From the NCBI GenBank assembly GCA_945901155.1, contig CAMDKO010000005.1, forward strand, positions 1 to 60,395: a stretch of DNA of 60,395 nt. Direction: 5' to 3'. Positions 13,800 through 53,096 of the stretch are shown here, in pieces. Made by a program: the position numbers and the translations under genes. How positions within the stretch are numbered: the first letter of the stretch is position 1; each line of letters opens with the position of its first letter. This DNA comes from Pedobacter schmidteae (GTDB lineage Bacteria > Bacteroidota > Bacteroidia > Sphingobacteriales > Sphingobacteriaceae). The notes below the pieces were generated by a model. The model saw only the letters and a list, made by a program, of their open reading frames with translations. It was not told where the DNA came from and did not search any database.

Positions 13800-13937
13800 T
13801 TAGTAATTAGTAGTTAGTAATTAGTAGTTAGTATAGATTTGTATTAATAATTCAACTTTTAGCTTTCAACTTATAACTTACAACTTTCACCTTTTAACTT
13901 AATACTTATAACCTATAACTTATAACTTAAAACTTAC
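13800..13937. repeat. Heptameric short-word arrays after guaB
   Basis: Two blocks. Units TTAGTAA, TTAGTAG and TTAGTAT make five in-phase heptamers at 13800-13834. Twelve in-phase heptamers fill 13854-13937 (consensus AACTTAT, variants such as AACTTAA and TACTTAT), and the last one contains the guaB stop codon. No terminator hairpin is seen after guaB. Confidence 0.9.
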
Positions 13938-15403
13938 CTACTATAGTTAGGCGCTTCTTTAGTAATTGTAATATCATGAGGATGGCTTTCGCGCATTCCA
14001 GCTGCCGTGATTTTAACAAATCTTGCATTTTGAAGATCATCGATTGTTACCGCACCGCAATAGCCCATACTCGCTCTTAGACCACCAATAAGCTGATACA
14101 TTACCTCTGCAAGTGATCCTTTGAAAGGCACTCGGCCCACAATGCCTTCGGGAACCAATTTTTTAATATCATCTTCAACATCCTGAAAATAACGATCTTT
14201 TGAACCTTGCTCCATAGCTTCAATAGAACCCATTCCGCGGTATGATTTAAACTTCCTGCTCTCGTAAATAATAGTCTCGCCTGGCGATTCTTCAACTCCA
14301 GCAAATAAAGATCCTGCCATGATCGTACTGGCACCTGCAGCAATTGCTTTTGCAATATCACCAGTTTGTTTTATTCCTCCATCGGCAATCACTGGCACTC
14401 CCCTTCCCTTAAGTGCTTTTGCGCATTCATATACCGCATATAATTGCGGAACACCAACACCTGCAATAATTCTGGTTGTACAAATAGAACCAGGTCCAAT
14501 CCCAACCTTAACAGCATCAGCACCCGCATCGGCCAATGCAATAGCAGCCTCGCCGGTTGCAATATTTCCAACAACCACCTGAAGATCAGGATATTTTGCT
14601 TTTACATCTTTCAATTTTTGAATAACCCCCTTAGAATGTCCGTGTGCCGTATCAATAGTGATCACATCCACTCCGGCTTTAACCAAAGCATCTACTCGCT
14701 CAATAGTATCTGGGGTAACTCCAACTGCTGCACCAACTCTCAATCGTCCATGCTCATCTTTACACGCATTTGGAAAATTTTTGAATTTCTGAATATCCTT
14801 AAACGTAATCAAACCGGTTAAATAACCTTGTTTATCTACAACTGGAAGTTTCTCAATTTTATAATCTTGCAGAATTTCTTCTGCCTGCTTCAAGGTCGTG
14901 CCCTCTGGTGCCGTGATCAGATTTTCACTGGTCATCACATCCTTTACAGGACGTTTCATATCTTTTTGAAAACGAAGATCACGGTTAGTAATAATCCCAA
15001 CCAATTTTCGGTCTGATGAGATAACCGGAATTCCACCAATCTTATAATCTTTCATAATCAGAAAGGCATCTGAAACCAAAGCATTTACATCAAGGGTTAC
15101 CGGATCCTGAATAATTCCACTTTCAGAACGCTTTACCTTACGAACCTCTTCTGCCTGCTGCGCAATACTCATATTTTTATGAAGCATGCCTATTCCACCG
15201 GCCTGAGCAATTGCAATTGCAAGACCCGATTCTGTAACGGTATCCATAGCAGCCGAAACAATAGGAATATTCAGTTTTATTTTACGAGTAAAATAAGTGC
15301 TGGTATCGACATCACGTGGTAAAACTTCGGAATAAGCTGGGATTAATAGTACGTCGTCATAGGTTAGGCCTTCTGCGACGAATTTTTCTGGATCTAGATG
15401 CAT
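13934..15403 (-). CDS. guaB: IMP dehydrogenase
   Basis: Oxidises IMP to XMP with NAD, the committed step of GTP synthesis. The 489-residue length is standard. The barrel is interrupted by a pair of CBS domains at about residues 97-205. The catalytic loop GPGSICTTR carries Cys308, with the IMP-phosphate segment [19 protein letters not shown] and the mobile flap [11 protein letters not shown]. The end of the gene runs straight into a heptamer array. Confidence 0.97.
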
Positions 15404-15540
15404 AGCAAATAATTGAGGGGTTATTACTTGCCAGGCAAATATAGAAATAAATATTGAAAATCCGAATTAGGATTTGAACTAGAAGGTATACTATCTAATT
15501 CGAAGCTTATAACATGCAAATCGAATCAGATAGTTTATCA

Positions 15541-16815
15541 TCATTTCTTTCCAACAATCACTTTTTCAAAAGAATTGAAATTTAAATATTGATTAGCAAG
15601 TGCTTGTAATTCTTCAGGGCCAATATTTCTTACTGTATTGATATAATTCTTATAATAATCATAGTCGAGGCCTGAGAAATAAACATTTTTAAATTTATCT
15701 GCATGAGATAGTGCATTTTCCAAACTTCCTAGCATTGAACCCAGCATATAATTCCTTACCAGTGCCAATTCACCTTCAGTTACAGGCTGCTCTTTTAATA
15801 GTGTGATCTCTTTTTCGATCTCAGTTAATGTAGCGGAACAGACCTCTGCGCCTACCTCTGATGCAATAAAAAAGTATCCCGTATTTTTTAATGAAACCAA
15901 TGCAGAACCAATACCATAGGTAAATCCCTTATCTTCACGAATATTGGCCATTAATCTGGAACCAAAATATCCACCAAGAATTGTATTTAAAACCTGTAGC
16001 CCAGGAAAATCAGCATGTTTCCGATTAATTGATACTTGTCCAATTCGGATGGCAGATTGCAAGGCATCCGCCCTTTCCAGAAAATGCTCTTGGCCAGAAC
16101 CCATAGTAAATTTGAATTCATTCTGCTTTATATCAATTGAATTATCCCAATCGGTTCCAAAGTACTTGTCTATAAGTGTAATCGTATCCTCATTAACCTT
16201 CCCTGAAATGATAACTGTGCAATTTTTAGGCTGGTATGCCAACTTAAAATAGGTGTTTAATTGATCTCTACTCAACTTGTCATAATCGGTAGCTGCAATA
16301 TCATAGCCATACAGCGTATCACCAAACAAAACATGGCTAAATGTTTTACGGCTCAGAAAATCGTTTTTTTCTAAACTTACACTCAGCTTTTGCTTTTGAT
16401 TGCGTATCAGGGTATCGAGTTCAACTTGCGGAAAAATCGAATCTGAAATAATAGCCTTTACAATGGGTAAGGTATTTGCTAGATGCTTATTTAACGTAAA
16501 TAAGATTACCGTTGAATGATCATTGGCATATTCAGTTTGAAGAAATGCACCATAGTAATCAATTTTATCAGCAATTTGGGTTGAACTAAGCTCTGAAGTA
16601 CCATCATTCAACATGGTATTGGTAGCGAATGTTTGTAGTGGTTTAGCAGAATCGTAATTAGTATTAGAGAAGATAAATTCTATGCGAACAAGATCTTGCT
16701 CTCCCCCATCAATACTGAATAGTTTTAATCCATTAGCCAGTACCAGAGGTTTGGCCCTGATCAGCTCTATATTCTCAACTTCACCATAAACCGGCGCAAC
16801 TGCTCTATCAATCAT
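15541..16815 (-). CDS. M16 family peptidase-like protein, non-catalytic partner
   Basis: 424 residues with two M16 (pitrilysin/insulinase) domains. The zinc motif HxxEH is missing: the equivalent place reads TFATNTMLNDGTSELS. The substrate-binding ANIREDKGFTYGIGS segment, typical of the second subunit of M16B heterodimers, is retained. It starts one base after the catalytic partner's stop and is certainly co-expressed with it. It lacks an obvious signal peptide. Confidence 0.88.
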   Translation of the reverse strand: MIDRAVAPVYGEVENIELIRAKPLVLANGLKLFSIDGGEQDLVRIEFIFSNTNYDSAKPLQTFATNTMLNDGTSELSSTQIADKIDYYGAFLQTEYANDHSTVILFTLNKHLANTLPIVKAIISDSIFPQVELDTLIRNQKQKLSVSLEKNDFLSRKTFSHVLFGDTLYGYDIAATDYDKLSRDQLNTYFKLAYQPKNCTVIISGKVNEDTITLIDKYFGTDWDNSIDIKQNEFKFTMGSGQEHFLERADALQSAIRIGQVSINRKHADFPGLQVLNTILGGYFGSRLMANIREDKGFTYGIGSALVSLKNTGYFFIASEVGAEVCSATLTEIEKEITLLKEQPVTEGELALVRNYMLGSMLGSLENALSHADKFKNVYFSGLDYDYYKNYINTVRNIGPEELQALANQYLNFNSFEKVIVGKK

Positions 16816-16816
16816 A

Positions 16817-18052
16817 TTAATTAGCTAAATAGTATAAAGTAGATGAATTTTCTTTCCGGAATATCTGTTTTGCCTGCGAACGAATTTCTTCAGAATTTAC
16901 ATCTAGATACTTTTGCGTTTCTAAATTCAATTCATTGGCATCTCCAAGAAGTTCGAAATAGGCAAGGTTCATTGCTTTGTCAAGCAGGCTCATTTCAGAA
17001 AAGACCATGGTCGATTCCATTTTGTTTTTAACCTTAGTCAGCTCTGCATCTGGAACTAATTCGGTACTGATCCGATCCAACTCCTCCCATATTGCTGCTT
17101 CAGCAACATCCATAGATACTCCCGGCAGGGGCTTTCCTTCAACAACAAATAATCCAGCATCTAAACTACCCGTGAGATAAGCATTTATATCACTAAATAA
17201 CTTCTTGTCTTTTAATAAATTACGAAACAATCTGGACGAGTTACCTCTTGAAAGAATATCTGAAATCAGATCAACCGCGTAATAACCCTGTTCAGTTCGT
17301 GCAGGCATATGAAACACCTTATATAGTGCATTTAAAGGCACATTCGCTTGCACAGTTTCTTTTCTTTCGTCGGTCTGAACACCTTCTTTAGGCAATAATC
17401 GGGGTATTTTCTTGCCGGCAGGAATAGTTCCAAACCATTTTTCAGAAAGCCTTTTTACTTCTTCAAGTTTCACATCCCCACCCACTACCATAATGGCATT
17501 TGAAGGGTTATAGTGACGGTTAAAAAAGGCTTTAACATCATTAATATTTGCATTTTCTATATGATCAAGCGACTTGCCAATGGTTGCCCATTGATAAGGA
17601 TGCTGCTTATAGGCCATCGGACGCAATTTGAGCCAAACATCACCATAAGGTTGATTGAGGTAACGCTGTTTGAACTCTTCACAAACCACATTGCGCTGTA
17701 CCAACAGGCTTTTCTCAGAAAAGGCAAGACTTAGCATGCGGTCACTTTCTAGCCAAAAGGCAGTTTCAAGGTTTACAGAAGGAAGCGTAATGTAATAATT
17801 GGTAATGTCATTGCTTGTGAAGGCATTATTCTCACCTCCTACTCGCTGTAAAGGTTCATCATAGGATGGAATATTGACAGAGCCTCCAAACATAAGATGT
17901 TCAAACAAATGGGCAAAGCCGGTTTGATCAGGATGTTCATCGCGGGCACCCACATCATACAGAATATTTAAAACCGCCATTGGGGTTGTGGGGTCTTCAT
18001 GTACCAGTACTTTAAGACCATTTGCAAGCGTAAAGCGTTTGAAAGAAACCAT
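16817..18052 (-). CDS. M16 family zinc metallopeptidase, catalytic subunit
   Basis: 411 residues, M16B type. The inverted zinc motif HLFEH is at residues 48-52 (His48, Glu51, His52), followed by a distal Glu in the VCEEFKQRYLNQPYG region. With the next gene it should form the clam-shell heterodimer that degrades unfolded peptides. No secretion signal is visible, so it is probably cytoplasmic or periplasmic by an unrecognised route. Confidence 0.92.
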   Translation of the reverse strand: MVSFKRFTLANGLKVLVHEDPTTPMAVLNILYDVGARDEHPDQTGFAHLFEHLMFGGSVNIPSYDEPLQRVGGENNAFTSNDITNYYITLPSVNLETAFWLESDRMLSLAFSEKSLLVQRNVVCEEFKQRYLNQPYGDVWLKLRPMAYKQHPYQWATIGKSLDHIENANINDVKAFFNRHYNPSNAIMVVGGDVKLEEVKRLSEKWFGTIPAGKKIPRLLPKEGVQTDERKETVQANVPLNALYKVFHMPARTEQGYYAVDLISDILSRGNSSRLFRNLLKDKKLFSDINAYLTGSLDAGLFVVEGKPLPGVSMDVAEAAIWEELDRISTELVPDAELTKVKNKMESTMVFSEMSLLDKAMNLAYFELLGDANELNLETQKYLDVNSEEIRSQAKQIFRKENSSTLYYLAN

Positions 18053-18148
18053 AAATTGGATCGGATTGAGATTGCGAATTTAGGGAAAAATATGAAGAGG
18101 AATTGGCTAATTCTCTCCTTTAATAATTTACCAATTGTCAAATTCCTC

Positions 18149-18166
18149 ACCCGATAGCTATCGGGT
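18149..18166. repeat. 18-bp perfect palindrome in a divergent promoter region
   Basis: ACCCGATAGCTATCGGGT lies between the M16 peptidase gene and mqnC. It has no T-tract and is not placed as a terminator. It could be a regulator site or a dispersed palindromic repeat. Confidence 0.6.
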
Positions 18167-18201
18167 TGCTAATTATCATTCCCGAAGTTACTAATTCTCC
18201 C

Positions 18202-18209
18202 TATCTTTG
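18202..18209 (+). promoter_or_regulatory. Candidate -7 element of mqnC
   Basis: TATCTTTG, an exact TAnnTTTG match, ends 3 nt before the ATG at 18213, so a transcript would start about at the start codon. Confidence 0.5.
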
Positions 18210-18212
18210 TTT

Positions 18213-19337
18213 ATGCTTATTTCCGATCTGCTTGCCCGGGCTCTAAATTTCGAATTTCTTTCTGCCGAAGAAGGATTATTCCTGTTCAAACATGCGGCAA
18301 CATCCGAACTGATGTACACGGCCAATGAGCTGCGTAAAAAGCAGGTACCCCATAACAAAGTAACCTGGATCATTGACCGTAATGTCAATACAACCAATGT
18401 GTGTATTGCCAATTGTAAATTCTGCAATTTTTTTAGAAGGCCAGGTCATGATGAAAGCTATATCACTGATATTGAAACTTATAAAATCAAGATCGAAGAA
18501 ACCTTCCGTTTTGGAGGCGATCAGCTTTTATTACAGGGTGGGCATCATCCTGACCTGGGTTTATCTTTCTATGTGGATCTGTTCAAACAACTCAAGCAAT
18601 TATATCCTACCTTAAAATTACACTCTCTTGGTCCGCCGGAAATAGCCCATATCTCCAAACTCGAAGGCATGAGCCATACCGAAGTCCTCAAAGCCTTAAT
18701 GGCCGCCGGGCTCGATTCCTTACCCGGTGCCGGGGCAGAAATATTAAACGACCGGGTTCGCCGGTTGATCTCAAAAGGCAAATGTGGCGGGCAAGAATGG
18801 CTGGATGTGATGCGTGCGGCGCATCAATTGGAATTGACCACTTCGGCCACCATGATGTTTGGGCATGTAGAAACACTGGAAGAACGTTTTGAGCATTTGG
18901 TTTGGCTGCGCGAAGTGCAAGCAGAAAAACCAGCCGATGCAAAAGGATTTATAGCCTTTATTCCATGGCCTTTTCAGGATGATGGAACGCTGCTTAAGAA
19001 AGTAAGAGGCATTACCAATCAAGTAACTTCTGACGAATACATCCGAATGATTGCCTTGAGCCGTATCATGCTACCCAATGTAAAAAATATTCAGGCATCT
19101 TGGTTAACGGTTGGGAAGCAGGTTGCTCAGATTTGTTTGCATGCCGGCGCCAATGATTTTGGCTCAATAATGATCGAAGAAAATGTAGTTTCAGCCGCTG
19201 GTGCCCCACACCGCTTTACCTCGCAAGGCATCCAAGATTCGATACGCGAAGCAGGATTTGAACCTCAGCTCAGAACACAGCAATACCAGTTCAGAGATTT
19301 GCCGAAAATGACTGAACAGCAGGTGATTGAGTACTGA
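18213..19337 (+). CDS. mqnC: Cyclic dehypoxanthinyl futalosine synthase
   Basis: Radical-SAM cyclisation enzyme of the futalosine pathway to menaquinone. 374 residues from the ATG at 18213 (an in-frame TTG at 18207 lies inside the promoter box). The iron-sulfur motif is CIANCKFC (CX3CX2C). MqnC rather than MqnE is indicated by FIPWPFQ, SLPGAGAEIL and GANDFGSIMIEENVVSAAG. The middle of the gene (about 18.65-18.95 kb) is clearly GC-richer than its neighbours. No other mqn gene is nearby. Confidence 0.88.
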   Translation: MLISDLLARALNFEFLSAEEGLFLFKHAATSELMYTANELRKKQVPHNKVTWIIDRNVNTTNVCIANCKFCNFFRRPGHDESYITDIETYKIKIEETFRFGGDQLLLQGGHHPDLGLSFYVDLFKQLKQLYPTLKLHSLGPPEIAHISKLEGMSHTEVLKALMAAGLDSLPGAGAEILNDRVRRLISKGKCGGQEWLDVMRAAHQLELTTSATMMFGHVETLEERFEHLVWLREVQAEKPADAKGFIAFIPWPFQDDGTLLKKVRGITNQVTSDEYIRMIALSRIMLPNVKNIQASWLTVGKQVAQICLHAGANDFGSIMIEENVVSAAGAPHRFTSQGIQDSIREAGFEPQLRTQQYQFRDLPKMTEQQVIEY

Positions 19338-19425
19338 TACTCAAAAAAATATACCGTTCACTCATTTTTATTGGATTTATGTTTTAATTACAAATATTTT
19401 AGTAAGTATACGTAATCATTATAAC

Positions 19426-20208
19426 ATGTCAATAAACGCACTTATAGTTGACGATGAAGAAATTTCACGTCAATGCCTATATTTCATCATAAGCGAGCAT
19501 TTCCCTGAAGTCAAAATCAAAGGCATAGCACAATCAGTTGCCGAAGCAAGAAAAATGCTAAAATCGGGTGAAATTGATTTGGTTTTTCTTGACATAGCTA
19601 TGCCAATTGAAGATGGATTTAATCTATTACCAGACCTGCAAAAAGCAAACTCAGTTGTAATTTTTACAACTGCCTATGATCAATATGCATTAGTAGCATT
19701 AAAGGCAAGTGCAATTGATTATTTATTAAAGCCCATTAATATTAACGAACTAAAGAATGCAGTATTAAAAGTTATTAAATTAAAAACCCGAAATGGGAAC
19801 GACAAAGTAATTTCTGATAATATCAAAGCACAACTCAACAGTCTTGAAGAAAATCTTAGCGATATCAAAAAGATCACTAAGATCAACCTTTCACATTCAA
19901 ATGGGTTTCAAATTCTCAATATCAATGAAATTATTTATGTTTTAGCAGATAGTAATTATTCAATTTTTCATCTTGAAAACAATCATAGCATCATTGCATC
20001 AAGACATCTTAAAGAATATGAAGAAATACTTAAGAATTCGGGTTTCAGTAGGATACATAAATCAACTATCATTAATTTGAAACATCTGAGTGACTATACC
20101 AATAAAAACGGTTTGATAGTAAAATTATCAGATAATTCAGAGCATGTGGTTTCCAGAAGAAGATCTTCCAAATTCCTTGAAACCGTCAAGAATTATTTTA
20201 AACATTAA
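19426..20208 (+). CDS. LytTR-family response regulator
   Basis: 260 residues. The receiver domain has acidic residues in VDDEE, phospho-acceptor Asp in FLDIAMP and Lys in LLKP; after a linker comes a LytTR DNA-binding domain with ILNINEIIYVLADSNYS and SGFSRIHKSTIIN. The start is the ATG at 19426. No histidine kinase lies beside it, so it is an orphan; Bacteroidota often pair such regulators with a distant LytS-like kinase. Confidence 0.92.
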   Translation: MSINALIVDDEEISRQCLYFIISEHFPEVKIKGIAQSVAEARKMLKSGEIDLVFLDIAMPIEDGFNLLPDLQKANSVVIFTTAYDQYALVALKASAIDYLLKPININELKNAVLKVIKLKTRNGNDKVISDNIKAQLNSLEENLSDIKKITKINLSHSNGFQILNINEIIYVLADSNYSIFHLENNHSIIASRHLKEYEEILKNSGFSRIHKSTIINLKHLSDYTNKNGLIVKLSDNSEHVVSRRRSSKFLETVKNYFKH

Positions 20209-20941
20209 TGCATTTAAAACGAGACATTTCTAAAATACCTACCGTTAACAAAATTAAATATACCGTATACTCATTTTAAAAAATTTTCGAACCAAATTGA
20301 TATACTATTGATTTAAAATAACCCGAAAAAAATTATTCTATTAAAGATGTAAATTATCGCATAGGGGTAATATTGGTTATTAAAAGGCGGTTGAAACGTT
20401 TGGGGCGTTTCACCGCCTTTATTACTTATTAAAAAACATATTTATATTTTAATATTAGTTCAATTGTTTATTCAATTTCATTTAATTTTTCTTTGAATCT
20501 GATTTAAAACTTGCGAAGTTGAAAAACAAAGTCTTGATTACTGCCTCCTCAATCAAATTGCTTCTAGTTATATTTTTTTCTTTTTATTTATTCAAACCCA
20601 CAATTTTATACAAAAAGTCTTTTGAAGATGTTTTCAGGACATTTAAAGGGATACCAGTATTAGAAAAATTCAAACAGGCAAATCTGGTAATGAAATTGTA
20701 ATTCAGATACCTGTATAAAAGCAGGGAGCACCTCTGCTCCAAATCATTATACCTTAACCACTATAAAATCAGGATTGATTTTATAAATGATTCAAATTAT
20801 ATCTAGAAATATTATAACTCTGGGACAAACAGTGCTATAAATATCTTTTTATATCACCGAATAATATTGGTTATTTTAAATTTCAATTCAATATTTTTAA
20901 ATCATTTTTTAGGAATATAATCCAATGTATTATGTTTGTCT
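20209..20941. other. Intergenic region with a strong hairpin
   Basis: No gene is supported in these 733 bp. A hairpin at 20383-20420 pairs AAAGGCGG...GAAACG with CGTTTC...CCGCCTTT (one bulged base), followed by ATTACTTATT. It is 174 nt after the LytTR stop and could be its terminator or the 3' end of a small RNA. A second small stem, GGAGCA/TGCTCC, is at 20725-20740. A 60-codon frame with a TTG start at 20519 has no recognisable similarity. Confidence 0.5.
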
Positions 20942-21508: not shown

Positions 21509-21616
21509 GAGATTGTTTTGTGAAATAAAAAATAAAAAAAGAAGAGCTGAAAATTCAAAATCTTATTAATTTTATATTCAATAAAAACACCATAAATAAA
21601 GCGTAATTTTCTACAG

Positions 21617-21817: not shown

Positions 21818-21844
21818 TGAGATAAGTCCTAATCAAATATTCAG

Positions 21845-21871
21845 GCATTCAGTTCTCTGAATGCTTTTTTT
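21845..21871 (+). terminator. Intrinsic terminator after the acidic small protein gene
   Basis: An 8-bp stem GCATTCAG/CTGAATGC with a 4-nt loop and a run of seven T. The next reading frame can open only 6 nt after the T-run. Confidence 0.9.
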
Positions 21872-21891
21872 ATTTAATGCCATTAAACCTT

Positions 21892-23010: not shown

Positions 23011-23011
23011 T

Positions 23012-28770: not shown

Positions 28771-28896
28771 TAAGTACTAAGTAATAAGTAATAAGTAGTA
28801 AGTTAGCTTCATTTCATAATAGCTCTTCATACTTCATACTTCATGCCTCAGATAACAGATAACAGATAACAGATAACTTACAAAAGACAACAGACA
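28771..28896. repeat. Heptameric short-word array after iscS
   Basis: Eighteen heptamers in constant phase from the base after the iscS stop codon. The word changes along the array: TAAGTAA-like, then TCATACT-like, then ACAGATA-like units (three identical copies at 28855-28875). It lies between iscS and iscU, within what would otherwise be an operon. Confidence 0.88.
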
Positions 28897-31745: not shown

Positions 31746-31836
31746 AAGGGGAAAGCTTAAAGGGGAAAGCTGAAAGCTGAAAGGGGAAAGCTAAAAGCTG
31801 AAAGGGGAAAGATGAAAGCTTAAAGGGGAAAGATGA
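31746..31836. repeat. Heptameric short-word array after the acyl-CoA synthetase gene
   Basis: Thirteen in-phase heptamers starting at the base after the stop codon, mixing AAGGGGA, AAGCTGA, AAGCTTA and AAGATGA. All units begin AAG. It lies between the acyl-CoA synthetase gene and lysS. Confidence 0.9.
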
Positions 31837-31926
31837 AAGTGATTTAATATTCATTGGAAAATTGCGGTTTTTTGTTCTTTCTTTTATGGGAGCTAAGCTT
31901 TCTTAACATTATTACGTCGAAAACCC

Positions 31927-35272: not shown

Positions 35273-35274
35273 GA

Positions 35275-35391
35275 ATTTGCTGATTTGTCAATTTGTTGAT
35301 TTGTCCATGACAATTATTTTTAATTGTTAAATGGTATTCCTATTGACAAATAGACAAATTGAATAATGGACAAATTAAATAAAAGACAAAT
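35275..35391. repeat. Octameric short-word arrays after both ung and lrp
   Basis: Right after ung, four in-phase octamers of type ATTTGTCN at 35275-35306 on the plus strand. On the other side, right after lrp, six in-phase octamers on the minus strand (35344-35391), of which four are ATTTGTC plus one base; the first begins with the last base of the lrp stop codon. The two blocks are therefore an imperfect inverted repeat. Confidence 0.88.
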
Positions 35392-35861
35392 TAGTACTCC
35401 AAAGGAACTGCAGGCTCCTTTTTATTCGTTGACATGATCATCATGGTTTGGAAGGTTTTAACAACCGAGATCTTACTGATCTTATCCATGATTAAACGTT
35501 CATATGATTTAATATCTTTCACATAAGCTTTTAATAGAAAATCACATTGCCCAGTAACATGATGGCATTCAGTAATTTCCTTTATCAATTCAATTTCTTC
35601 CAAAAATACCTGTATCGTATTATTTTTATGAAAATCAAGCTGAATCTGAATGAAAGTTTTTATTCCTAAACCAAGTAATTCTTCATCAACAAGAGCATGA
35701 TAGCTTTTAATATAATGGGCTTGTTCAAGTTTCCTGACTCGCTCAAGGGTAGGTGCCGGAGACAGACCTACTTCATGTGACAGTTGAAGATTAGTAATCC
35801 TTCCATTCTCCTGTAGAATCTTTAAAATTCTAAAATCGATTTTATCCAGTTCTATAGCCAT
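35391..35861 (-). CDS. Lrp/AsnC-family transcriptional regulator
   Basis: 156 residues. A winged-helix of DNA binding at about residues 5-65 (DFRILKILQENGRITNLQLS, then LSPAPTLERVRKLE) is followed by the AsnC ligand-binding RAM domain. Probably senses amino acids; its regulon cannot be told from the sequence. Confidence 0.93.
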   Translation of the reverse strand: MAIELDKIDFRILKILQENGRITNLQLSHEVGLSPAPTLERVRKLEQAHYIKSYHALVDEELLGLGIKTFIQIQLDFHKNNTIQVFLEEIELIKEITECHHVTGQCDFLLKAYVKDIKSYERLIMDKISKISVVKTFQTMMIMSTNKKEPAVPLEY

Positions 35862-38528: not shown

Positions 38529-38581
38529 GATGTGAGATGAAGTCTGAGGGCTGAAGTCTGAAGTATGAGGTATGAGATATG
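38526..38581. repeat. Heptameric short-word array after the Nramp gene
   Basis: Eight in-phase heptamers (TGAGATG, AAGTCTG, AAGTATG and similar). The first unit includes the TGA stop codon. Confidence 0.88.
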
Positions 38582-38616
38582 AGAAAGAGGATATTGTCAG
38601 AAAAAAAATATAACCC

Positions 38617-41938: not shown

Positions 41939-41941
41939 GGT

Positions 41942-42116
41942 TACGAATTACGAATTACGAATTATTAATTACGGAGTACGGAGTACGAATTACGAATTAC
42001 GAATTACGGAGTACGGAGTACAAATTACGAATTATTAATTACGAATTACGGAGTAACAAATACGAATTCTGCATTCTTAATTTTTAATTCTTAATTTTTA
42101 ATTCTTTATTAACTAC
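41942..42116. repeat. 25 consecutive heptamers between smpB and pcm
   Basis: The complete gap from three bases after the smpB stop to the pcm stop is 25 heptamers in one phase (175 bp). Dominant words are TACGAAT and TACGGAG, then TCTTAAT and TTTTAAT near pcm. The unit sequence drifts, the period never does. Confidence 0.93.
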
Positions 42117-45710: not shown

Positions 45711-45775
45711 ATTGTTAGATTAGATTGCTAATTTAACAAACATGTTTGCAATTCTACTTTGAAGACATAAAAATA

Positions 45776-45783
45776 TAAATTTG
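45776..45783 (+). promoter_or_regulatory. Candidate -7 element for the DUF3352-like gene
   Basis: TAAATTTG, an exact TAnnTTTG match, 16 nt before the ATG at 45800. Confidence 0.45.
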
Positions 45784-45799
45784 TTTAAAGTAAATTTTA

Positions 45800-47416
45800 A
45801 TGAAAACAATAATTGGGATCACTGCAGCCTTATTAATCACTGTACTGTCTGTAGCTTACCTATACTTTTCAAATCTCAATATTACAAACCGTAGTAATAA
45901 TCAGATTTTATCAGAAATACCGTTGGATGCATCAGTAGTTTTTCAGCATCAAAACGACCAAAGCCTTTACGATATTTTTGAAGATTACACAATTTTTGAT
46001 ACCATTGCTGGGCCTCAAAAAAAAGAAGATATCCATTGGCTAAGCAACTTTATACTGAGCAATGCTGCTCTAAAACCCTCAATATCAGGTCAGAAGGTAT
46101 TTTTATCATTCCATCCATCTCAAACTGACAGTGTTCATTTTCTTTGGTCAATGCAACTAAAAGAATCACTTAATGCAGAAAACATAAGGAAAATTAGTGC
46201 AAGTGACCCTTCAAATCAGATCCTTACATTTCAGGAAAATGGGCAAAATATATTTCTGATAAAAAATAAAACACTTAATCGATCTTTTTATTTTGCTATT
46301 GACAAGGGAATTGCTAGAGGCAGTTTCAACAAGGACATTCTTTTTCGGAGTTTGGATAAAAACTCAGAGAAGATTGATCCTGAATTCATTAAAATCATTA
46401 ATGAAGGAGTTAGAAAAGACGAAAATGCATTGGTAAACCTGTTTATCAATTATAAGAAACCAGGATTTCTCAAACCCTTTTTCAGGAATAACCTGAGTGG
46501 CAACTTTGAGATTTTGCAGAGTTTTTCGGGTTTTTCAAGCTTAGGCCTTAATTACAAAAATGACGATCTTATATTTAATGGGCTCACGAGTATTTCAGAT
46601 AAAAAGAATAATTATACCAGGCTATTCTTAAAGCAGACACCTGTAAAAAATACAATTAAACGGATACTGCCTTATAACACATCTAATTCATTAGTTTATG
46701 GTCTATCGAGCTACACAACTTTTCATGATGAGTTAATTAGTTTATTTAAAGAAAGAAAAGAACTTGACACGCTTATCAAGCAAATAGATAAAATAATCTC
46801 TGAAACCGGGATCAATCCTGACCGTGACATCAAGAAATTATGGGGCAATGAGCTATCCACGATTCAACTTTCGACCTATGAAAACCTGTCGATTATTAAA
46901 ATTACGAATGGAACACAGATGCAATTTTTCCTTGAGCCATTAAGCTCAACTTATTCTGAAACGATCAGAAAGATTAATTTCGAGAGCTTATTTTATAATT
47001 ATTGGGGTGATCCTCTAAAAAAATACGCTAAGCCATTTTATATCATTACAGATAATTTGCTCATCCTATCTAATTCACCTGGCACCTTGCAGCGATATCT
47101 TAAAGACTATAATTCGGAAAGATTCCTCTTAAAAACGGAGGCATTCACACAATTTGATCAACTTGTTGGTGATCAAAGTAATATTTCATTCATTCTGCAT
47201 TTTAATAATTCGGCAAGTATTCTTAAAAATTTATTAAAAAGAAATTATGCAGATAACTTTGGGAACAATAAATATGGTATAAATGACCTGTACGCTTTCT
47301 CTTATCAACTTGCGAGCAATAAAGATCATTTTTTTACCAATTTTTATACAGGTTATAAAAAATCAGCTGCAACTCTAGATGATGTTTTAACCGTAGATAG
47401 TATTAATAAGCAATAA
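45800..47416 (+). CDS. Membrane-anchored or secreted protein of unknown function (DUF3352-like)
   Basis: 538 residues. Starts with a single hydrophobic helix (residues 3-28). The first segment NNQILSEIPLDASVVFQ and the general layout resemble DUF3352-type proteins of Bacteroidota. No catalytic motif is seen. It is followed 7 bp later by a DUF5723 gene, a frequent Bacteroidota pairing as far as I recall. Confidence 0.6.
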   Translation: MKTIIGITAALLITVLSVAYLYFSNLNITNRSNNQILSEIPLDASVVFQHQNDQSLYDIFEDYTIFDTIAGPQKKEDIHWLSNFILSNAALKPSISGQKVFLSFHPSQTDSVHFLWSMQLKESLNAENIRKISASDPSNQILTFQENGQNIFLIKNKTLNRSFYFAIDKGIARGSFNKDILFRSLDKNSEKIDPEFIKIINEGVRKDENALVNLFINYKKPGFLKPFFRNNLSGNFEILQSFSGFSSLGLNYKNDDLIFNGLTSISDKKNNYTRLFLKQTPVKNTIKRILPYNTSNSLVYGLSSYTTFHDELISLFKERKELDTLIKQIDKIISETGINPDRDIKKLWGNELSTIQLSTYENLSIIKITNGTQMQFFLEPLSSTYSETIRKINFESLFYNYWGDPLKKYAKPFYIITDNLLILSNSPGTLQRYLKDYNSERFLLKTEAFTQFDQLVGDQSNISFILHFNNSASILKNLLKRNYADNFGNNKYGINDLYAFSYQLASNKDHFFTNFYTGYKKSAATLDDVLTVDSINKQ

Positions 47417-47423
47417 TTAAAGA

Positions 47424-48863
47424 ATGATCATAACCTGGAGAAAGAGCAACTATTTATTCAAAATATTCGTTTGGACAATCATCATAATAGGCACAAACAG
47501 CAGAACTTTTGCTCAACAATTTTCGCTTTATAATAGTCGTACTCTATACGACAGTTTTGAGAATCCATCTCAAAGAGCTTACCAGGTAGATACCAGCAAA
47601 CGTTTTGCTTTTAATTTTTTTATACCAACGATTAGCATAAACGGCTCTTTTTCCGGACCTGCACAAGCTGCGTTCAAAACACTGCTTTATAATGGGGAGT
47701 TTAATGGCAGTAATATTACGATTGGAGGAAATAAGCAAAATAGTCTCACCTTTCATTCAAATAATTATGTGGCGATGCTTAGGATGTTAAAGTCTGTCAA
47801 GAAATACAAGGAAATAGGGCTATCCTGGCAGATCAGAAACGATGGTAGAGCTGAAGTAAGCAATGAAATTTTTGCGGTATTCGACGATTACAGAATCTTT
47901 AACTCTAGCTCATTACAGGAGATTTTTAATTTAAATGTTTATAATCAATCGTTTCATCAGTTTAGTTTTACCTACAGGCAGAACTATACTAAGCGTTTAG
48001 CCATTGGGGCTAAATTAAGTCTGCTCAGCGGCATTAGTTATACTAAGATAAAGGTTCGCCAGTCTGAAATAAATATGGACAAAGCTGCAGATGTAATAGA
48101 CATTTCTCTTCAAGGTACCATGCGATCGAGTTTCAAGTTTGATAATTTCCAAAGAGAGATGGTCAATCCAAATTTCAAAAATCCTGGCTTTTCTGTTAGT
48201 GCAAGTGCTAGTTATAAATTACCTGATGGCTGGTTTGTTTTAGGTAATTTAAAAGATTTTGGATTAATCAAATGGAACAAGGATTCGTACGAGTATAACT
48301 TTAATACTGACAAGATCTTCATTGATAATGCATCCAATCAAAGTGCCGATAACAGACTTGCAGACAGTCTTGATAAGAATATAAGTTCAACTTCTATAAA
48401 CAAATCGTATGTAAGTGTACTAAACGGCAAAGCAGAGATCCTGATCAATAAAAATTTTGGGAATTACCGTCCCAATCTAATTTTATCAAAAAGCATTTAT
48501 TACAAAGGAGGAGATATTGCCTTAGTTAATAACTTTCATTATAAAAATTATGTATTCACCTATATGACTGATTACAACACCAATGGTTTTTTACAGTTAG
48601 GTGGACAGTTGATGATTAAAACTCCAAATGTTGAATTCTACATGGGAAGTGATCATCTTATTAAGTCGTTGGAAATATTGAAGTCTTATAATAAAAATGA
48701 AATTATCTATCCCAATGGATATACCGGGGTTTCATTTTATATGGGCTTTGCGTTGAAATTTGGCAAGATATTGGAACATCCTTTAAATGCCACACAGATA
48801 CCTGGCTTTATCAAAGACCCTAAGAAAGGATTTATCAAACGACTATCCGGAAAAAAGAACTAG
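47424..48863 (+). CDS. DUF5723 family outer-membrane beta-barrel-like protein
   Basis: 479 residues with a signal peptide (hydrophobic stretch to about residue 28, then AQQFSLYNSRTLYDSFENPS). That N-terminus and the alternating beta pattern are those of the DUF5723/PorV-like proteins. Likely an outer-membrane beta-barrel. It ends convergent with tsaB and overlaps it by 4 bp. Confidence 0.72.
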   Translation: MIITWRKSNYLFKIFVWTIIIIGTNSRTFAQQFSLYNSRTLYDSFENPSQRAYQVDTSKRFAFNFFIPTISINGSFSGPAQAAFKTLLYNGEFNGSNITIGGNKQNSLTFHSNNYVAMLRMLKSVKKYKEIGLSWQIRNDGRAEVSNEIFAVFDDYRIFNSSSLQEIFNLNVYNQSFHQFSFTYRQNYTKRLAIGAKLSLLSGISYTKIKVRQSEINMDKAADVIDISLQGTMRSSFKFDNFQREMVNPNFKNPGFSVSASASYKLPDGWFVLGNLKDFGLIKWNKDSYEYNFNTDKIFIDNASNQSADNRLADSLDKNISSTSINKSYVSVLNGKAEILINKNFGNYRPNLILSKSIYYKGGDIALVNNFHYKNYVFTYMTDYNTNGFLQLGGQLMIKTPNVEFYMGSDHLIKSLEILKSYNKNEIIYPNGYTGVSFYMGFALKFGKILEHPLNATQIPGFIKDPKKGFIKRLSGKKN

Positions 48864-49555
48864 AGAAGTTCTTTTTTTGATGTTGTAAGTAGAAAGTCCT
48901 TCAAATAAAATGGTTCGAAATAAGCCAGATTTTCAAAATCTAAATCCCGGAATTTTTTCAAAGCCAGAATATTTAAATGACAGGCAGATGTAGCAAAATC
49001 ACTAAAATTAATGTGAGGATGATCTGCAAAAAGTGCTCTGAATTTATCAGCACCATCACCAAAAAGGAATAGCGACTGATCATTATATTCATTAAATGAG
49101 TCTTTATCAACAATTTTTGCGCAAACTGATTCAACAATACTCAAATCTTTCTGGTATATCCCAGTATAAACCTCCATACGCCTAGCATCAAGCATTGGTA
49201 TAAGTAATGAAGAATCAGGGATGTTACAAGATTCCCTAAAACCAGAGGCCATTGCTTCTATAGTATCAATTCCAATTAAGGGAATATCAAGAGCATAGCA
49301 TAAGCCTTTAGCTGTTGAAACTCCAATTCTTAATCCCGTGTATGAACCAGGTCCTTTACTTATTGCAATTGCCTGAAGATCAGAATACTTCTTGTTAGCA
49401 GCAAACATCACCTCTTCAATAAACAAGGTTATATGGCTGGCATGAATATTACGCTCGTTCACCTCTTTTAATGCAATGATATTACCATTATGAGCCAAGG
49501 CTACAGAACAAGTTGTTGTTGCAGTTTCAAGAAGTAAAATCAATTGATCTTTCAT
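48860..49555 (-). CDS. tsaB: tRNA threonylcarbamoyladenosine biosynthesis protein TsaB
   Basis: 231 residues, ASKHA fold. Motif LLETATTTCSVALAHNGNI at the start and KGPGSYTGLRIGVSTAKGL mark it. Partner of TsaD and TsaE for the t6A tRNA modification. Confidence 0.95.
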   Translation of the reverse strand: MKDQLILLLETATTTCSVALAHNGNIIALKEVNERNIHASHITLFIEEVMFAANKKYSDLQAIAISKGPGSYTGLRIGVSTAKGLCYALDIPLIGIDTIEAMASGFRESCNIPDSSLLIPMLDARRMEVYTGIYQKDLSIVESVCAKIVDKDSFNEYNDQSLFLFGDGADKFRALFADHPHINFSDFATSACHLNILALKKFRDLDFENLAYFEPFYLKDFLLTTSKKELL

Positions 49556-49593
49556 GGATACAAAGGAGCAAAATTAATTACAAATTATAAAGC

Positions 49594-49830
49594 TTAAGGT
49601 ACTGGATCATGACCATGCCCACCCCAGGGGTGGCAGCGACCAATACGTTTTAAGGTAAGCCAGCCACCTTTAAACGGACCATATTTATTTATAGCTTCAA
49701 GCCCATAATGAGAACATGTTGGAGTAAAACGGCATGATTTTCCAAGAATAGGTGAAATTAAATACTGATAGATTTTTATCAGAAGTAAAAACAGGGTAGA
49801 AAATGCCTTTTTTATAAGCTTTTTGAACAT
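49594..49830 (-). CDS. yidD: Membrane protein insertion efficiency factor YidD
   Basis: 78 residues. [34 protein letters not shown] contains the three conserved Cys (split here only for description) and the [18 protein letters not shown] tail is the hallmark. Overlaps the 3' end of rnpA by 19 bp. Probably helps YidC insert inner-membrane proteins. Confidence 0.95.
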
Positions 49831-50216
49831 GTTTGCTCGGATATGTTCTTTTTTAATCGCAGCATTACAGTATTAAATTTCTTTGCCATTGAAGCATATT
49901 CAGCAATTTCATTCCCGATATAATTAATAGCAAGTACTATTTTTTCGGAACGTTCATTAAGAAAAGGAAAAAGGTCTTCAGACTTTTGAAGTCGGTAGAT
50001 TTCACGAATTCTGCGCTTTAGCAAATTTCTATCTACAGCACGTTTAAACTTTTTTTTGGGAATACTAATTAGCACCTGAACAGGAAATTCTGAATTCGCT
50101 TCAGAGGAGAGCCAAATTATACGAAAGGGATAAACTAAAAAAGAAGAACCGTTATGATAAAGCTTTTCTATAAGCTGAATATTACATAACCGTTCTTCCT
50201 TTTTAAAACTGTTCAT
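49812..50216 (-). CDS. rnpA: Ribonuclease P protein component
   Basis: 134 residues. [28 protein letters not shown] (shown in part: [18 protein letters not shown]) is the RNase P protein signature. It follows rpmH by 79 bp and yidD by overlap, the usual rpmH-rnpA-yidD order. Confidence 0.94.
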
Positions 50217-50295
50217 TTTGATTGTTATTTAGCCTGACTGACAAGCAGAAATTGATCTGCAAAATCGTAAAAGGCTACGAAAATACAATCAAAAA

Positions 50296-50454
50296 TTATG
50301 CTTTATGGCGACGCTCGTCAGATACAGATAGTCTCTTTCTACCTTTAGCTCTTCTAGAAGCTAATACTCTTCTTCCGTTTGCACTGCTCATACGCTCTCT
50401 AAACCCGTGCTTATTTCTTCTTTTTCTTTGAGAAGGCTGGAATGTTCTTTTCAT
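50296..50454 (-). CDS. rpmH: 50S ribosomal protein L34
   Basis: 52 residues, [18 protein letters not shown] at the start and RRHKA at the end. It is the usual Bacteroidota length, and its small size keeps it below ordinary gene-length cut-offs. Perfect TTTG-N19-TATATTTG promoter upstream. Start of the rpmH-rnpA-yidD unit. Confidence 0.97.
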
Positions 50455-50492
50455 GACTCTTTAATCTATTATTACTCTAAAAAACAAGAGTG

Positions 50493-50523
50493 CAAATATA
50501 AGCTTGATTTTTCACAATTCAAA
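50493..50523 (-). promoter_or_regulatory. Promoter of rpmH
   Basis: TTTG (50520-50523) and TATATTTG (50493-50500) on the minus strand, separated by exactly 19 nt: a full consensus match. It starts transcription about 38 nt before the rpmH ATG. Confidence 0.8.
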
Positions 50524-50581
50524 CAGTTGATTAAAAATATCCTTATCTTTCTTGAGAAACGAATTTCCCACACTCAGATTT

Positions 50582-50810
50582 ATGAAATTTAACCCTCTGT
50601 ATTTGCTTATATTATTTTCAAATATAGCCTTTGCACAGCTTAAAACCGAAAATTATAAAATTTATAATACCCAGTCAAAAAGTATATGCTCATTAGATGA
50701 ATGAATATTTACAAAACATGATCCGCGAAAAGAATTTCATTAAAGAAGCCAGGGAATGGAATAAATACACTGATTATAAACCGATAATAGAATTTACAAA
50801 GGAAAAAGAC
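50582..50810 (+). pseudogene. Decayed ChaN-like (Tiki/DUF399) secreted protein gene
   Basis: Begins with an intact signal peptide (MKFNPLYLLILFSNIAFAQ), then YKIYNTQSKS, typical of the ChaN family start, and stops at TGA 50704 after 40 codons. A direct TGAA duplication at 50702-50705 shifts the frame; ignoring it, reading continues as DEYLQNMIREKNF, then KEAREWNKYTDYKP, as in the middle of ChaN proteins, up to GAC at 50810. Most of the N-terminal catalytic half and everything after this point are missing, the latter replaced by the mscL end. Pseudogene call is by eye; family assignment is moderate. Confidence 0.55.
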
Positions 50811-50817
50811 CTTTTAC

Positions 50818-51231
50818 TTATTTATTTTGTTGTTTTAACAGATCCCTAATCTCCATTAATAATGCTTCCTCAGGGCTTGGTGCTAGCTGGGCTACAGGCG
50901 TTTCCTCTTCTTTACGCTTAAGAGCATTCATGGTTTTTATCACGGCGAAAATACAAAAGGAAACAATCAGGAACTGAATTACAGCATTAATGAAATTTCC
51001 ATAACGTATAGCCACTTCTTCTACTTTAAAGATAGCATCAGCAGAAATTAAAACTAGCTTCTTTGAAGAGAAGTCAACACCACCCATTATAAATCCCAAA
51101 GGTGGCATCAGAATATCATCAACCAATGAAGTGATGATCTTTCCAAAGGCAGCGCCGATGATCACACCGACAGCTAGATCAACCACATTTCCTTTAGATA
51201 TAAATTCTTTAAACTCCTTAATAATCGCCAT
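50818..51231 (-). CDS. mscL: Large-conductance mechanosensitive channel
   Basis: 137 residues. [20 protein letters not shown] is the N-terminal signature, with a second transmembrane helix around residues 75-100 and a charged C-terminal helix. Releases solutes on osmotic down-shock. Confidence 0.96.
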
Positions 51232-51376
51232 ATAATTTCTAAATTTTAAAAACTTACTAAATATGATTAGTTTTTAACTAAATCAAAAATATTTTTACAT
51301 TAAATCGAATACAAAATTTACATTAATAATGCACCAAACACCAATATTTGTGTAATTTTACGTGATAATTCAAATC

Positions 51377-52846
51377 ATGTTAAGACAAAATCTTCAGCAA
51401 AAGCTTCTTCAAAAACTATCTCCTCAACAAATTCAATTTATTAAGTTATTACAGGTACCAACTGTATCGCTTGATACCCGAATTAAAGAAGAGTTGGAAG
51501 ATAATCCAGCACTTGAAGATCTTAGTCTTGCTAACATGAATGAACCAGCAGAGGAATATCCAGATAGGGATCCAGACGATAATTTCAATTCAGAAGATAG
51601 CCAGGAAAGTTCAGATGAATTTAATGTTGATGACTATTTGCAGGACGACAACATCAACGACTTCGGTTCCAAATATGAGCAGAACGGAGATGAGGATGAG
51701 GAGCGAAAAGAAATTCCTATTGCTGTGCAAAATTCATTTTTTGAAAGCCTTCAAATACAGCTCCATCTGGTACCCTTATCCGATAAAAATTTCAGAATTG
51801 GGCAACAAATAATTGGAAGTCTTGATGATGATGGCTACTTACGTCGTCAAATTACTTCGCTGATCGATGATCTTGCTTTTTCGCAGAACGTATATGCAGA
51901 GGAAGAGGAGGTGCTTGAGATGCTTAAAGTAATTCAATCATTCGATCCCGCAGGAGTTAGTGCAAGAGATCTTCAAGAATGTTTATTAATTCAACTTAGA
52001 AAAAAAAATCAAAATCCAATTGTTAGAAAAGCCACTAGAGTAGTAGAACAATTTCTAGAGGAATTTACTAAAAAACATTACGACAAACTTGAACGTTCCC
52101 TAAACATGGATTCAGAGGAACTTAAAGAGGTTGTAAATGAGATACTCAAGCTTAACCCAAAACCTGGCGATTCGAATGCTGTCACAACCAAGCAACTCCA
52201 AATCATCCCCGATTTTCATATCAGTAATAACGACGGTATTTTATTTTTGACCTTAAACTCAAAAAATGCTCCTGAACTGCGTGTCAGTCGTTCGTATCAG
52301 GACATGTTTGAACATTACGATAAAACTGCTCAAAAGGATAAAAAACTAAAAGAAGCAGTACAATTTGTAAAACAAAAACTTGATTCAGCGAAATGGTTCA
52401 TCGATGCAATTAAACAGCGTCAGCAAACTTTGCTTAAAACTATGAATGCTATCATGCATTATCAGTATGAATATTTTTTGACCGGCGACGATAAGAATCT
52501 GAAACCCATGATCCTTAAAGATATTGCTGATCGTATTGGCATGGATATCTCAACCGTTTCAAGGGTAGCTAATTCTAAATATGTGCAAACAGAATTTGGA
52601 ACCTTTTTATTGAAATCATTTTTTTCTGAAGCCATTCAGATGGAAAGTGGAGAGGAAGTATCCAATAAAGAGGTTAAAAAAATTCTTGAGGAATGCATTG
52701 GCAAAGAAGATAAAAGACGACCACTTGCAGATGAAAAACTGACTGAAATCCTCAAAGAACAAGGCTATAATATTGCTAGAAGAACTGTGGCCAAATATAG
52801 GGAAGCGATGAATATACCGGTAGCGAGATTAAGGAAAGAGCTTTAA
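51377..52846 (+). CDS. rpoN: RNA polymerase sigma-54 factor
   Basis: 489 residues from the ATG at 51377 (a GTG five codons upstream also opens the frame). Region I (Gln/Leu-rich, QQKLLQKLSPQQIQF), an acidic region II, the core-binding region III and the C-terminal RpoN box ARRTVAKYREAMNIP are all present. No sigma-54 activator is nearby. Array after its stop. Confidence 0.95.
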   Translation: MLRQNLQQKLLQKLSPQQIQFIKLLQVPTVSLDTRIKEELEDNPALEDLSLANMNEPAEEYPDRDPDDNFNSEDSQESSDEFNVDDYLQDDNINDFGSKYEQNGDEDEERKEIPIAVQNSFFESLQIQLHLVPLSDKNFRIGQQIIGSLDDDGYLRRQITSLIDDLAFSQNVYAEEEEVLEMLKVIQSFDPAGVSARDLQECLLIQLRKKNQNPIVRKATRVVEQFLEEFTKKHYDKLERSLNMDSEELKEVVNEILKLNPKPGDSNAVTTKQLQIIPDFHISNNDGILFLTLNSKNAPELRVSRSYQDMFEHYDKTAQKDKKLKEAVQFVKQKLDSAKWFIDAIKQRQQTLLKTMNAIMHYQYEYFLTGDDKNLKPMILKDIADRIGMDISTVSRVANSKYVQTEFGTFLLKSFFSEAIQMESGEEVSNKEVKKILEECIGKEDKRRPLADEKLTEILKEQGYNIARRTVAKYREAMNIPVARLRKEL

Positions 52847-52853
52847 GGAGAGT

Positions 52854-53096
52854 TGTCTGTTATCTGTTGTGTGTTATCTGTTGTCTGTTATCAGTTGGTT
52901 AGTTATTAGTTAGTTAGGTGGTTAGTTAGTTAGTACTCAATACTAAATACTAAAAAAGATGTTGTCTGTTGTCAGTTATCTGTTGTCTGAGGTAGGAGGT
53001 CTGAAAGAAGCAGAAAATCTGAAATTAGCACTACACAGTCTTGGTTCTTGGCTCTGTGTTTCTGTTGTCTGATAACTGTTAACTGTTAACAGACGT
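52854..53096. repeat. Heptameric short-word arrays between rpoN and porP
   Basis: Eight in-phase heptamers (TGTCTGT, TATCTGT and similar) at 52854-52909, a four-unit block at 52963-52990, and five on the minus strand (TTAACAG-like, 53062-53096) abutting the porP stop. The first block starts 7 nt after the rpoN stop. Between them lie further TTAGTTAG-like words without a clean phase. Confidence 0.85.

What the first reader, a model, noticed from the sequence alone, without database searches (positions are those of the whole stretch)
13800..53096. Strictly 7-nt-period arrays seeded at stop codons of ten genes
Arrays with a constant 7-nt period (8-nt in one case) start at or within seven bases of the stop codon of guaB, iscS, the acyl-CoA synthetase gene, ung, lrp, nramp, smpB, pcm, rpoN and porP. 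Each array has its own word that drifts by substitution, yet the phase never breaks inside a block. They resemble the heptameric STRR sequences of cyanobacteria, here in Bacteroidota and tied to gene 3' ends. The units often contain stop codons, and a 7-nt period moves these through all frames, so a back-up translation stop or a 3'-end processing role is possible.
Basis: partly seen in the sequence, partly recalled or inferred. Interest (0 to 1): 0.8.

Follow-up and report, generated by a model that had tools for sequence, protein, structure and literature searches.

The report
Spreading seven-base repeats between genes
The gaps between genes in this bacterium hold many short repeats that are nearly always seven bases long, a known but unexplained kind of bacterial repeat, here apparently copied in part from gap to gap as ready-made blocks and often running right up to the stop codon of a gene.

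Summary
In 400 kb of the same genome outside the window there are 43 intergenic period-7 arrays (0.05 expected), one genic, and few of other periods. The ten genes bound seven intergenic regions; ung/lrp is a period-8/16 hairpin instead. The tie to stop codons is a bias: 40 of 81 three-prime ends of array regions have an array within 7 nt (22.6 expected); arrays also lie at gene starts. Back-up stops are not supported: the TAACTGA-like family lies stop-free at 9 of 10 gene ends. Hairpins are not the rule.

These are heptanucleotide satellites of a kind reported in cyanobacteria, Xanthomonas, Beggiatoaceae and a few Bacteroidetes. Likeliest mechanism: unit duplication plus copying between loci, with selection setting the edges. 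Apparently new: within one genus the step stays at seven while words change by species; three word families form an ordered composite around a 36-nt core, one copy lying between rpoN and porP; genes beside arrays in this clade end in TAG unusually often. What fixes the step at seven is open.

The parts
13851..13936 (-). period-7 array running into the stop codon of guaB; sense word TAAGTTA, then AAAGTTG
13792..13833 (-). second period-7 array of the same region (TTAGTAA), 2 nt from the called start codon of the downstream TIGR00730 gene; a 33-nt block recurs in contig C32
28771..28803 (+). period-7 array directly at the iscS stop codon (TAAGTAA)
28825..28844 (+). period-7 array, word CTTCATA (family B)
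28849..28877 (+). period-7 array, word CAGATAA (family A), joined to family B by the junction CCTCAGATAACAGA at 28846-28859
31746..31839 (+). period-7/21 array directly at the acyl-CoA synthetase stop codon (AAAGCTG/AAAGGGG); related word at the same place in G009
35274..35393 (.). period-8/16 arms (35274-35305 and 35345-35393) in inverted orientation between ung and lrp; folds as a hairpin, z -4.9 on the + strand; not a period-7 array
38537..38584 (+). period-7 array between nramp and the convergent thioredoxin-like gene (TGAAGTC/TGAGGTA); same word family at the orthologous place in G009
41941..42110 (+). period-7/35/42 array filling the smpB-pcm region (TACGAAT, then AATTCTT kind); the region holds arrays in 8 of 18 genus members and is 6-11 nt long without an array in G003, G018 and G012
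52852..52897 (+). period-7/14 array 5 nt after the rpoN stop codon (GTTATCT/GTTGTCT, family A, stop-free orientation)
53003..53040 (-). copy of the core of the dispersed composite, between family G words (AACCAAG) and family B/A words
53069..53090 (-). period-7 array 6 nt from the porP stop codon

Best explanation
These are intergenic heptanucleotide satellites (long simple sequence repeats, the kind called STRR in cyanobacteria). Shown: the unit is seven bases with many different words; neighbouring units are more alike than distant ones and longer periods are multiples of seven; ordered blocks of several words, in part around a non-repetitive 36-nt core, recur in unlinked intergenic regions; arrays occupy the same place in some related species while words and copy number change. 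Inferred: new units arise by strand slippage or unequal exchange during DNA synthesis, whose geometry favours a seven-base step; blocks are copied between loci by recombination or template switching; arrays fill intergenic DNA that selection tolerates, so their edges fall at stop codons and just before start codons because insertions beyond would damage genes. They are commonest between convergent genes, where no promoter lies. On this reading the arrays have no conserved role in translation stop or RNA 3'-end formation.
For: Period 7, 43 against 0.05 expected, with 14 and 21 as multiples. Period-7 arrays in all 11 genus members sampled (1 to 87 each), with other words in some: CAACTTT in G003, ACCTAAT in G018. 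Unit identity falls from 0.795 at one unit to about 0.59 at 12 units. Higher-order units of 14, 21, 28, 35 and 42 nt in the window. Exact 22-mers shared by 57 of 1081 pairs of array regions, 0 of 1081 control pairs. Order B to A 17 against 2, A to G 8 against 0. Junction CCTCAGAYAACWGA 37 times in G000, 35 in G002, 21 in G016, reversed control 0 in all 16 genomes. Core GTTTAGTRCTAATTKRA 10 in G000, 14 in G002; of 35 hits of its 10-nt heart in the two samples, 20 have family G words on the left and the core's second half on the right, 19 of these with family B words beyond. smpB-pcm region: arrays in 8 of 18 genus members, 6-11 nt without array in three. Convergent 19 of 113, divergent 8 of 137 regions.
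Against: Several results are not explained by a neutral view. (1) The strand that reads outward from a gene is richer in G than C in 76 of 99 half-regions (p = 8.5e-8; 3' 39:15, 5' 37:8); array-free regions give 220:217 at 3' ends and 310:224 at 5' ends. (2) TAG stops are enriched beside arrays, beside abutting ones most, but in G002 also beside arrays further away (6 of 15, p = 0.02; own 8 of 31, p = 0.07). (3) Array-free regions show little lag-7 residue (z 1.7), so no clear tail of decaying arrays, although lag 21 (z 7.5) and lag 6 (z 6.5) are raised there for reasons unknown. (4) Arrays are unevenly spread: C1, C6 and C9 had none in the first sample. In word classing 403 of 1085 units fitted no family, and C/B order ran both ways (15 and 12) with 14 strand switches. 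The copying agent is unknown and boundaries were not tested.
Confidence: 0.6

Rival explanations
1. Back-up translation stops: the seven-base step carries stop codons through all three frames, so the arrays catch ribosomes that read through.
For: 60% of 35 abutting arrays have stops in both other frames within 24 nt, against 22% of 479 controls, and 80% an in-frame second stop against 49%; stops recur in register at +7, +14, +21 and +28.
Against: Any sense stop within 28 nt is not raised (30 of 35 against 93%), and 23% have no stop in either other frame, as in controls (22%). Family A within 30 nt of a stop lies stop-free 9 of 10 times. Arrays also lie at gene starts.
Confidence: 0.05
2. Transcription terminators or 3'-end processing structures built from repeats.
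For: Tandem regions with arrays fold better than array-free ones (median z -2.34, n 36, against -0.89, n 95). Some regions have a word and its complement, by inspection. The period-8 ung/lrp element is a clear hairpin.
Against: Convergent regions with arrays fold worse than array-free ones (-0.46 against -2.16, 16 each). Left and right halves of one region are no more complementary than halves of different regions (0.091 against a null mean of 0.101, 66 regions) (regions over 400 nt were not folded and controls are a random 150). Window arrays at iscS, acyl-CoA synthetase and smpB have z 0.2, -0.5 and -1.1.
Confidence: 0.12
3. Binding sites for a repeat-reading RNA- or DNA-binding protein (S1, cold-shock or similar), the role MacGregor proposed for TAACTGA before start codons.
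For: Related words occur in several phyla. Family A within 30 nt of a start codon lies in the TAACTGA sense 10 of 10 times, six genomes pooled. Cold-shock proteins can bind one heptamer each (passage in PMC4679880).
Against: Words differ between species of one genus while the step stays, and between orthologous places, which a strict sequence reader would not allow. Family A lies as often near stops as near starts (10 and 10).
Confidence: 0.1
4. Part of the arrays is a small mobile repeat (the B-A-G composite with its core) moved by an unseen enzyme, and other arrays are its expanded or decayed remains.
For: Fixed order, core in unlinked places, six core hits in a row at G002:C2.
Against: No core in 11 of 15 genomes searched, while period-7 arrays are in all 11 members sampled. 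Families C, D and E have no fixed place in the composite. No match of the rpoN-porP region in plasmids or of one exact 19-base core in viral contigs.
Confidence: 0.13

Closest known systems
TAACTGA heptamer repeats of marine Beggiatoaceae, cyanobacteria and five Bacteroidetes (MacGregor 2015, PMC4679880; abstract, passages, introduction and Bacteroidetes section seen)
   Same: Intergenic heptamer direct repeats; the same word (family A here is its reverse complement kind); other heptamer words beside it in Gramella and Aequorivita; forward sense before starts, and in Flexibacter one set in reverse sense right after a stop, which is the orientation rule found here.
   Different: There one word was searched and in BOGUAY lies mostly before start codons; here about seven word families, edges at stop codons too, and a composite with a core.
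G-rich heptamers GGGAATC of Xanthomonas and GGGGA(C/T)T of Nostoc (Rehm 2015, PMC4692102; passages and two sections seen)
   Different: Words here are mostly AT-rich without runs of G (AAAGGGG arrays excepted); several words per genome; no stop codon association in what I saw of that paper.
STRR heptamers of Calothrix (known here through PMC4692102; the name STRR is recalled, the original not read)
   Same: Tandem heptanucleotides, several words in one genome.
   Different: Not compared.
Bacterial satellites derived from heptamers, e.g. (GATAGRA)n of Chloroflexus (PMC6749651, passages seen)
   Same: Heptamer-derived arrays at many places in one genome.
   Different: One word in that species; no ordered composite in the passages seen.

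Membership tests
heptanucleotide long simple sequence repeats (LSSR) | tandem units of seven bases beyond chance | tested here: met
   43 against 0.05
heptanucleotide long simple sequence repeats (LSSR) | intergenic, avoided in coding sequence | tested here: met
   43 in 33.8 kb intergenic, 1 in 366 kb coding
heptanucleotide long simple sequence repeats (LSSR) | copy number varies between strains | tested here: inconclusive
   varies between species at orthologous places; no close strains were available
TAACTGA repeats (MacGregor) | direct repeats of TAACTGA | tested here: met
   AACTGAT class among exact adjacent repeats of the own genome; AACWGAY pattern 158 overlapping hits in G000
TAACTGA repeats (MacGregor) | mostly directly before start codons (BOGUAY) | tested here: not met
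   of 51 family A arrays in six genomes 10 lie within 30 nt of a called start and 10 within 30 nt of a stop
G-rich heptamers (Rehm) | G-rich strand reads outward from the gene at both ends | tested here: met
   76 of 99 half-regions; cyanobacterial loci 3' 41:11, 5' 25:14 and Bacteroidota loci 12:6, 8:1 with pattern-matching arrays excluded; other phyla 5:4, 4:3
G-rich heptamers (Rehm) | four G-tracts able to form a G-quadruplex | tested here: inconclusive
   by inspection of the word list most words have no G run; the acyl-CoA synthetase array has five GGGG runs with long loops
intrinsic terminator | stable hairpin | tested here: not met
   as a rule; tandem array regions do fold better than controls, and the period-8 ung/lrp element is a hairpin
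mobile element | constant boundaries and target-site duplication | not tested
   no close empty sites were available for the composite

The most novel reading that the evidence does not exclude
A dedicated or default end-extension process makes these arrays: broken or nicked ends in intergenic DNA are extended on the 3' strand by copying the last seven bases again and again with errors, and then rejoined. That would give one fixed step for any word, phase-locked drift, a G-richer strand pointing outward from genes in unrelated groups (Bacteroidota and cyanobacteria here, Xanthomonas in print), arrays that start at the last tolerable base, and perhaps the shift of the stop codon to TAG. It would be a telomerase-like outcome without a fixed template.
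Probability: 0.07. Interest if true: 0.85.

Novelty: new variant of a known kind. Interest (0 to 1): 0.52.

Why it matters
Why seven? Heptamers were reported in 2007 as the commonest class of longer repeat in most genomes rich in them, with a guess at polymerase contact (as cited in PMC4679880 and PMC4692102); a later survey found longer units mostly normally represented (PMC4060949, passages). A genus in which the step stays at seven while species use other words separates step from sequence and makes the question testable. The ordered composite points to copying between loci, not only local slippage.

Tried and rejected
Loss of Ku (end joining) as the cause: Ku is present in 6 of 19 genus members searched, all six without the family A pattern; of 13 without Ku, 11 have it. 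But Ku-bearing G003 (11 arrays in 140 kb), G018 (5 in 100 kb), G012 (3 in 120 kb) and G015 (1 in 100 kb) carry period-7 arrays of other words, and Ku-bearing species are all among the more distant ones by SmpB identity; rejected.

General hairpins: rejected as a rule. Rho-site spacing (YC every seven bases, recalled) was considered and dropped without a count. Viral or plasmid origin of the composite: no match (one pattern, one query). Rfam at gathering scores: nothing in the window.

TAG enrichment as a general rule: not seen in 113 named loci (abutting against none: Bacteroidota 6 of 16 and 24 of 96, cyanobacteria 6 of 30 and 41 of 140, others 1 of 7 and 27 of 90) nor in four more distant species (1 of 9 against 53 of 230). 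TAG as simple overwriting of the third base by the array: doubtful, since in 12 of 20 TAG cases that base differs from the one seven further on.

Full report
WHAT IS THERE. The window is the whole of contig C5 of a 2.74-Mb draft genome in 191 contigs. Tandem Repeats Finder and my own scan find period-7 arrays in six of the seven regions concerned; the seventh, between ung and lrp, has period 8/16 with two inverted arms that fold as a hairpin (z -4.9 and -3.9 on the two strands) and is a different thing.

IS IT MORE THAN CHANCE. Among periods 4 to 25, intergenic DNA holds 43 arrays of period 7 (shuffles 0.05), 33 of period 14, 24 of period 21, and 10 of all other periods together. Coding DNA, eleven times larger, holds one of period 7. 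Over 854 kb of the own genome and 531 kb of a close relative (G002) there are 87 and 54 intergenic arrays; 3 and 6 more fall inside called ORFs and are left out.

WHERE. Regions of 20 nt or more with arrays: convergent 19 of 113, tandem 43 of 547, divergent 8 of 137. Among the 70 array-bearing regions an array edge lies within 7 nt of the stop codon at 40 of 81 three-prime ends (22.6 expected if the same blocks are placed at random) and within 7 nt of the called start at 18 of 59 (12.1 expected). So the tie to stop codons is a real bias, not a rule. Of 35 arrays that abut a stop, a good part have the stop codon as part of the repeated word, e.g. TAGGTTA, TAATTCG, TAAGTAA; stop trinucleotides recur at +14 and at +28 in 13 of 35 each.

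POLARITY. The strand that reads outward from a gene is richer in G than C in 76 of 99 half-regions, at both 3' and 5' ends; array-free regions show nothing at 3' ends and a weaker bias at 5' ends. For family A the rule is nearly strict: GTTRTC on the sense strand at 9 of 10 stops, GAYAAC at 10 of 10 starts, six genomes pooled. In array regions of named loci, after removing arrays that match my search pattern, it is clear at 3' ends of cyanobacteria (41:11), present but weaker elsewhere (cyanobacterial starts 25:14; Bacteroidota 12:6 and 8:1) and not visible in other phyla (5:4 and 4:3). The same rule was reported for G-rich heptamers of Xanthomonas and Nostoc (PMC4692102, sections seen).

STOP CODON USE. 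Genes whose array abuts the stop end in TAG in 15 of 26 cases in the own genome, against 89 of 654 without an array (p = 4e-7), and in 5 of 11 against 57 of 379 in G002 (p = 0.02). Arrays further off also show some excess: 8 of 31 (p = 0.07) and 6 of 15 (p = 0.02). Pooled over five further relatives: 6 of 8 against 51 of 315 (p = 5e-4). Over four more distant species: 1 of 9 against 53 of 230. At smpB the 8 genus members with arrays have TAG 6, TAA 2; the 10 without have TAG 0, TAA 9, TGA 1. In ortholog pairs where one member has an array, TAG with array and TAA without occurs 13 times, the reverse 0, of 30 discordant pairs; many come from smpB and pcm. Not seen in 113 named loci of other groups. 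I have no firm explanation.

WORDS, ORDER, COPYING. The own genome uses a limited vocabulary: 29 rotation-and-strand classes of exactly repeated heptamers in 460 kb, which I grouped by eye into about seven families; 403 of 1085 units of the own genome and G002 fit none of my patterns. The same blocks recur in unlinked regions: 57 of 1081 pairs of array regions share an exact 22-mer, 0 of 1081 pairs of length-matched array-free regions. Three families stand mostly in one order and orientation (B to A 17 against 2, A to G 8 against 0), while C and B follow each other both ways (15 and 12) and 14 strand switches occur. B, A and G words surround a non-repetitive core of about 36 nt (GACTGTTTAGTGCTAATTGAAATTTTCTGCTTTTTT, consensus by eye). 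The junction is found in 6 of 16 and the core in 4 of 15 genomes searched, common only in G000, G002 and, for the junction, G016. The window copy of the core is at 53003-53040, minus strand, between rpoN and porP; the orthologous region in G001 is 13 nt long and has no array.

ACROSS SPECIES. At smpB-pcm 8 of 18 genus members have arrays with related or other words, and G003, G018 and G012 have only 10, 6 and 11 nt. Among orthologous adjacent gene pairs (own array and other array / own only / other only / neither): G002 2/0/2/69 (one of the two 'other only' is a poor ortholog), G001 2/2/0/22, G009 4/1/1/35, G003 1/3/0/23, G012 0/4/1/13; part of these stretches was chosen around smpB. Arrays of the same word family stay at the same place in own and G009 at nramp and smpB, where flanking proteins are 76-93% identical. 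More distant members have other words, such as CAACTTT in G003 and ACCTAAT in G018; numbers are small in G004, G015, G012 and G134 (1, 1, 3 and 4 arrays). In 400 kb from 11 other families of the class, 6 intergenic arrays of period 7 were found, in four of the 11; one (G019) has period 8 instead. A named scan with a degenerate three-unit word stopped at its limit with 113 loci: 54 cyanobacterial, 32 Bacteroidota, 27 others by my reading of the titles. The organism itself could not be named.

MECHANISM. Unit identity falls with distance (0.795 at one unit to about 0.59 at 12), and longer periods are multiples of seven: local duplication of one or several units. Shared ordered blocks suggest copying between loci as well. 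Array-free regions have little lag-7 residue (z 1.7), but lag 21 (z 7.5) and lag 6 (z 6.5) are raised for reasons unknown. The simplest account is a satellite that grows by slippage or exchange with a step of seven, is copied between loci by recombination or template switching, and is trimmed by selection at genes. That polymerase contact sets the step is Mrazek's proposal, known to me here only through PMC4679880 and PMC4692102. Selection as boundary keeper is inferred from avoidance of coding DNA and divergent regions.

FUNCTIONAL READINGS. Back-up stops, terminators and protein-binding sites are weighed under rivals; the first two have direct tests against them. RNA data were not available.

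PRINT. Searches and 81 of an open-access library brought up heptamer repeats described in Beggiatoaceae, cyanobacteria, five Bacteroidetes, Xanthomonas and Chloroflexus; in the listings, passages and sections seen there was no ordered heptamer composite with a core and no stop codon association. The library lacks most subscription journals.

Noticed in passing
35273-35390: Between ung and lrp two sets of 8-nt units (GATTTGTC and GACAAAT kinds) lie in inverted orientation and fold as a long hairpin, z -4.9: a repeat-built structure between convergent genes unlike the period-7 arrays.
   Followed up: partly
window region after 18052: Parts of a palindrome (CCCGATAGCTATCGGG and its flanks) are shared by up to 14 intergenic regions of the own genome and G002 sample, one of them this region.
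   Followed up: no
own genome contigs C1, C6, C9: 60, 40 and 40 kb in the first sample carry no intergenic period-7 arrays while C2, C3, C4, C8 and the window are rich: uneven distribution.
   Followed up: no
L256 (G018): In G018 several arrays are ACCTAAT/ACCTAAC, i.e. TTAGGTA on the other strand, a telomere-like word in a bacterium.
   Followed up: no
L293-L294 (G019): A genome of another family of the class has intergenic arrays of period 8 (8, 16, 24) and none of period 7, with period 7 inside called coding sequence.
   Followed up: no
L084 (G002 C2 80700-82010): Six core hits of the composite in a 1.3-kb divergent region, followed by a long stretch of CTAACCA/ACTAACC-like words.
   Followed up: partly
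own genome 854-kb sample: Array-free intergenic regions show raised lag-6 and lag-21 self-match (z 6.5 and 7.5) without a lag-7 signal.
   Followed up: no
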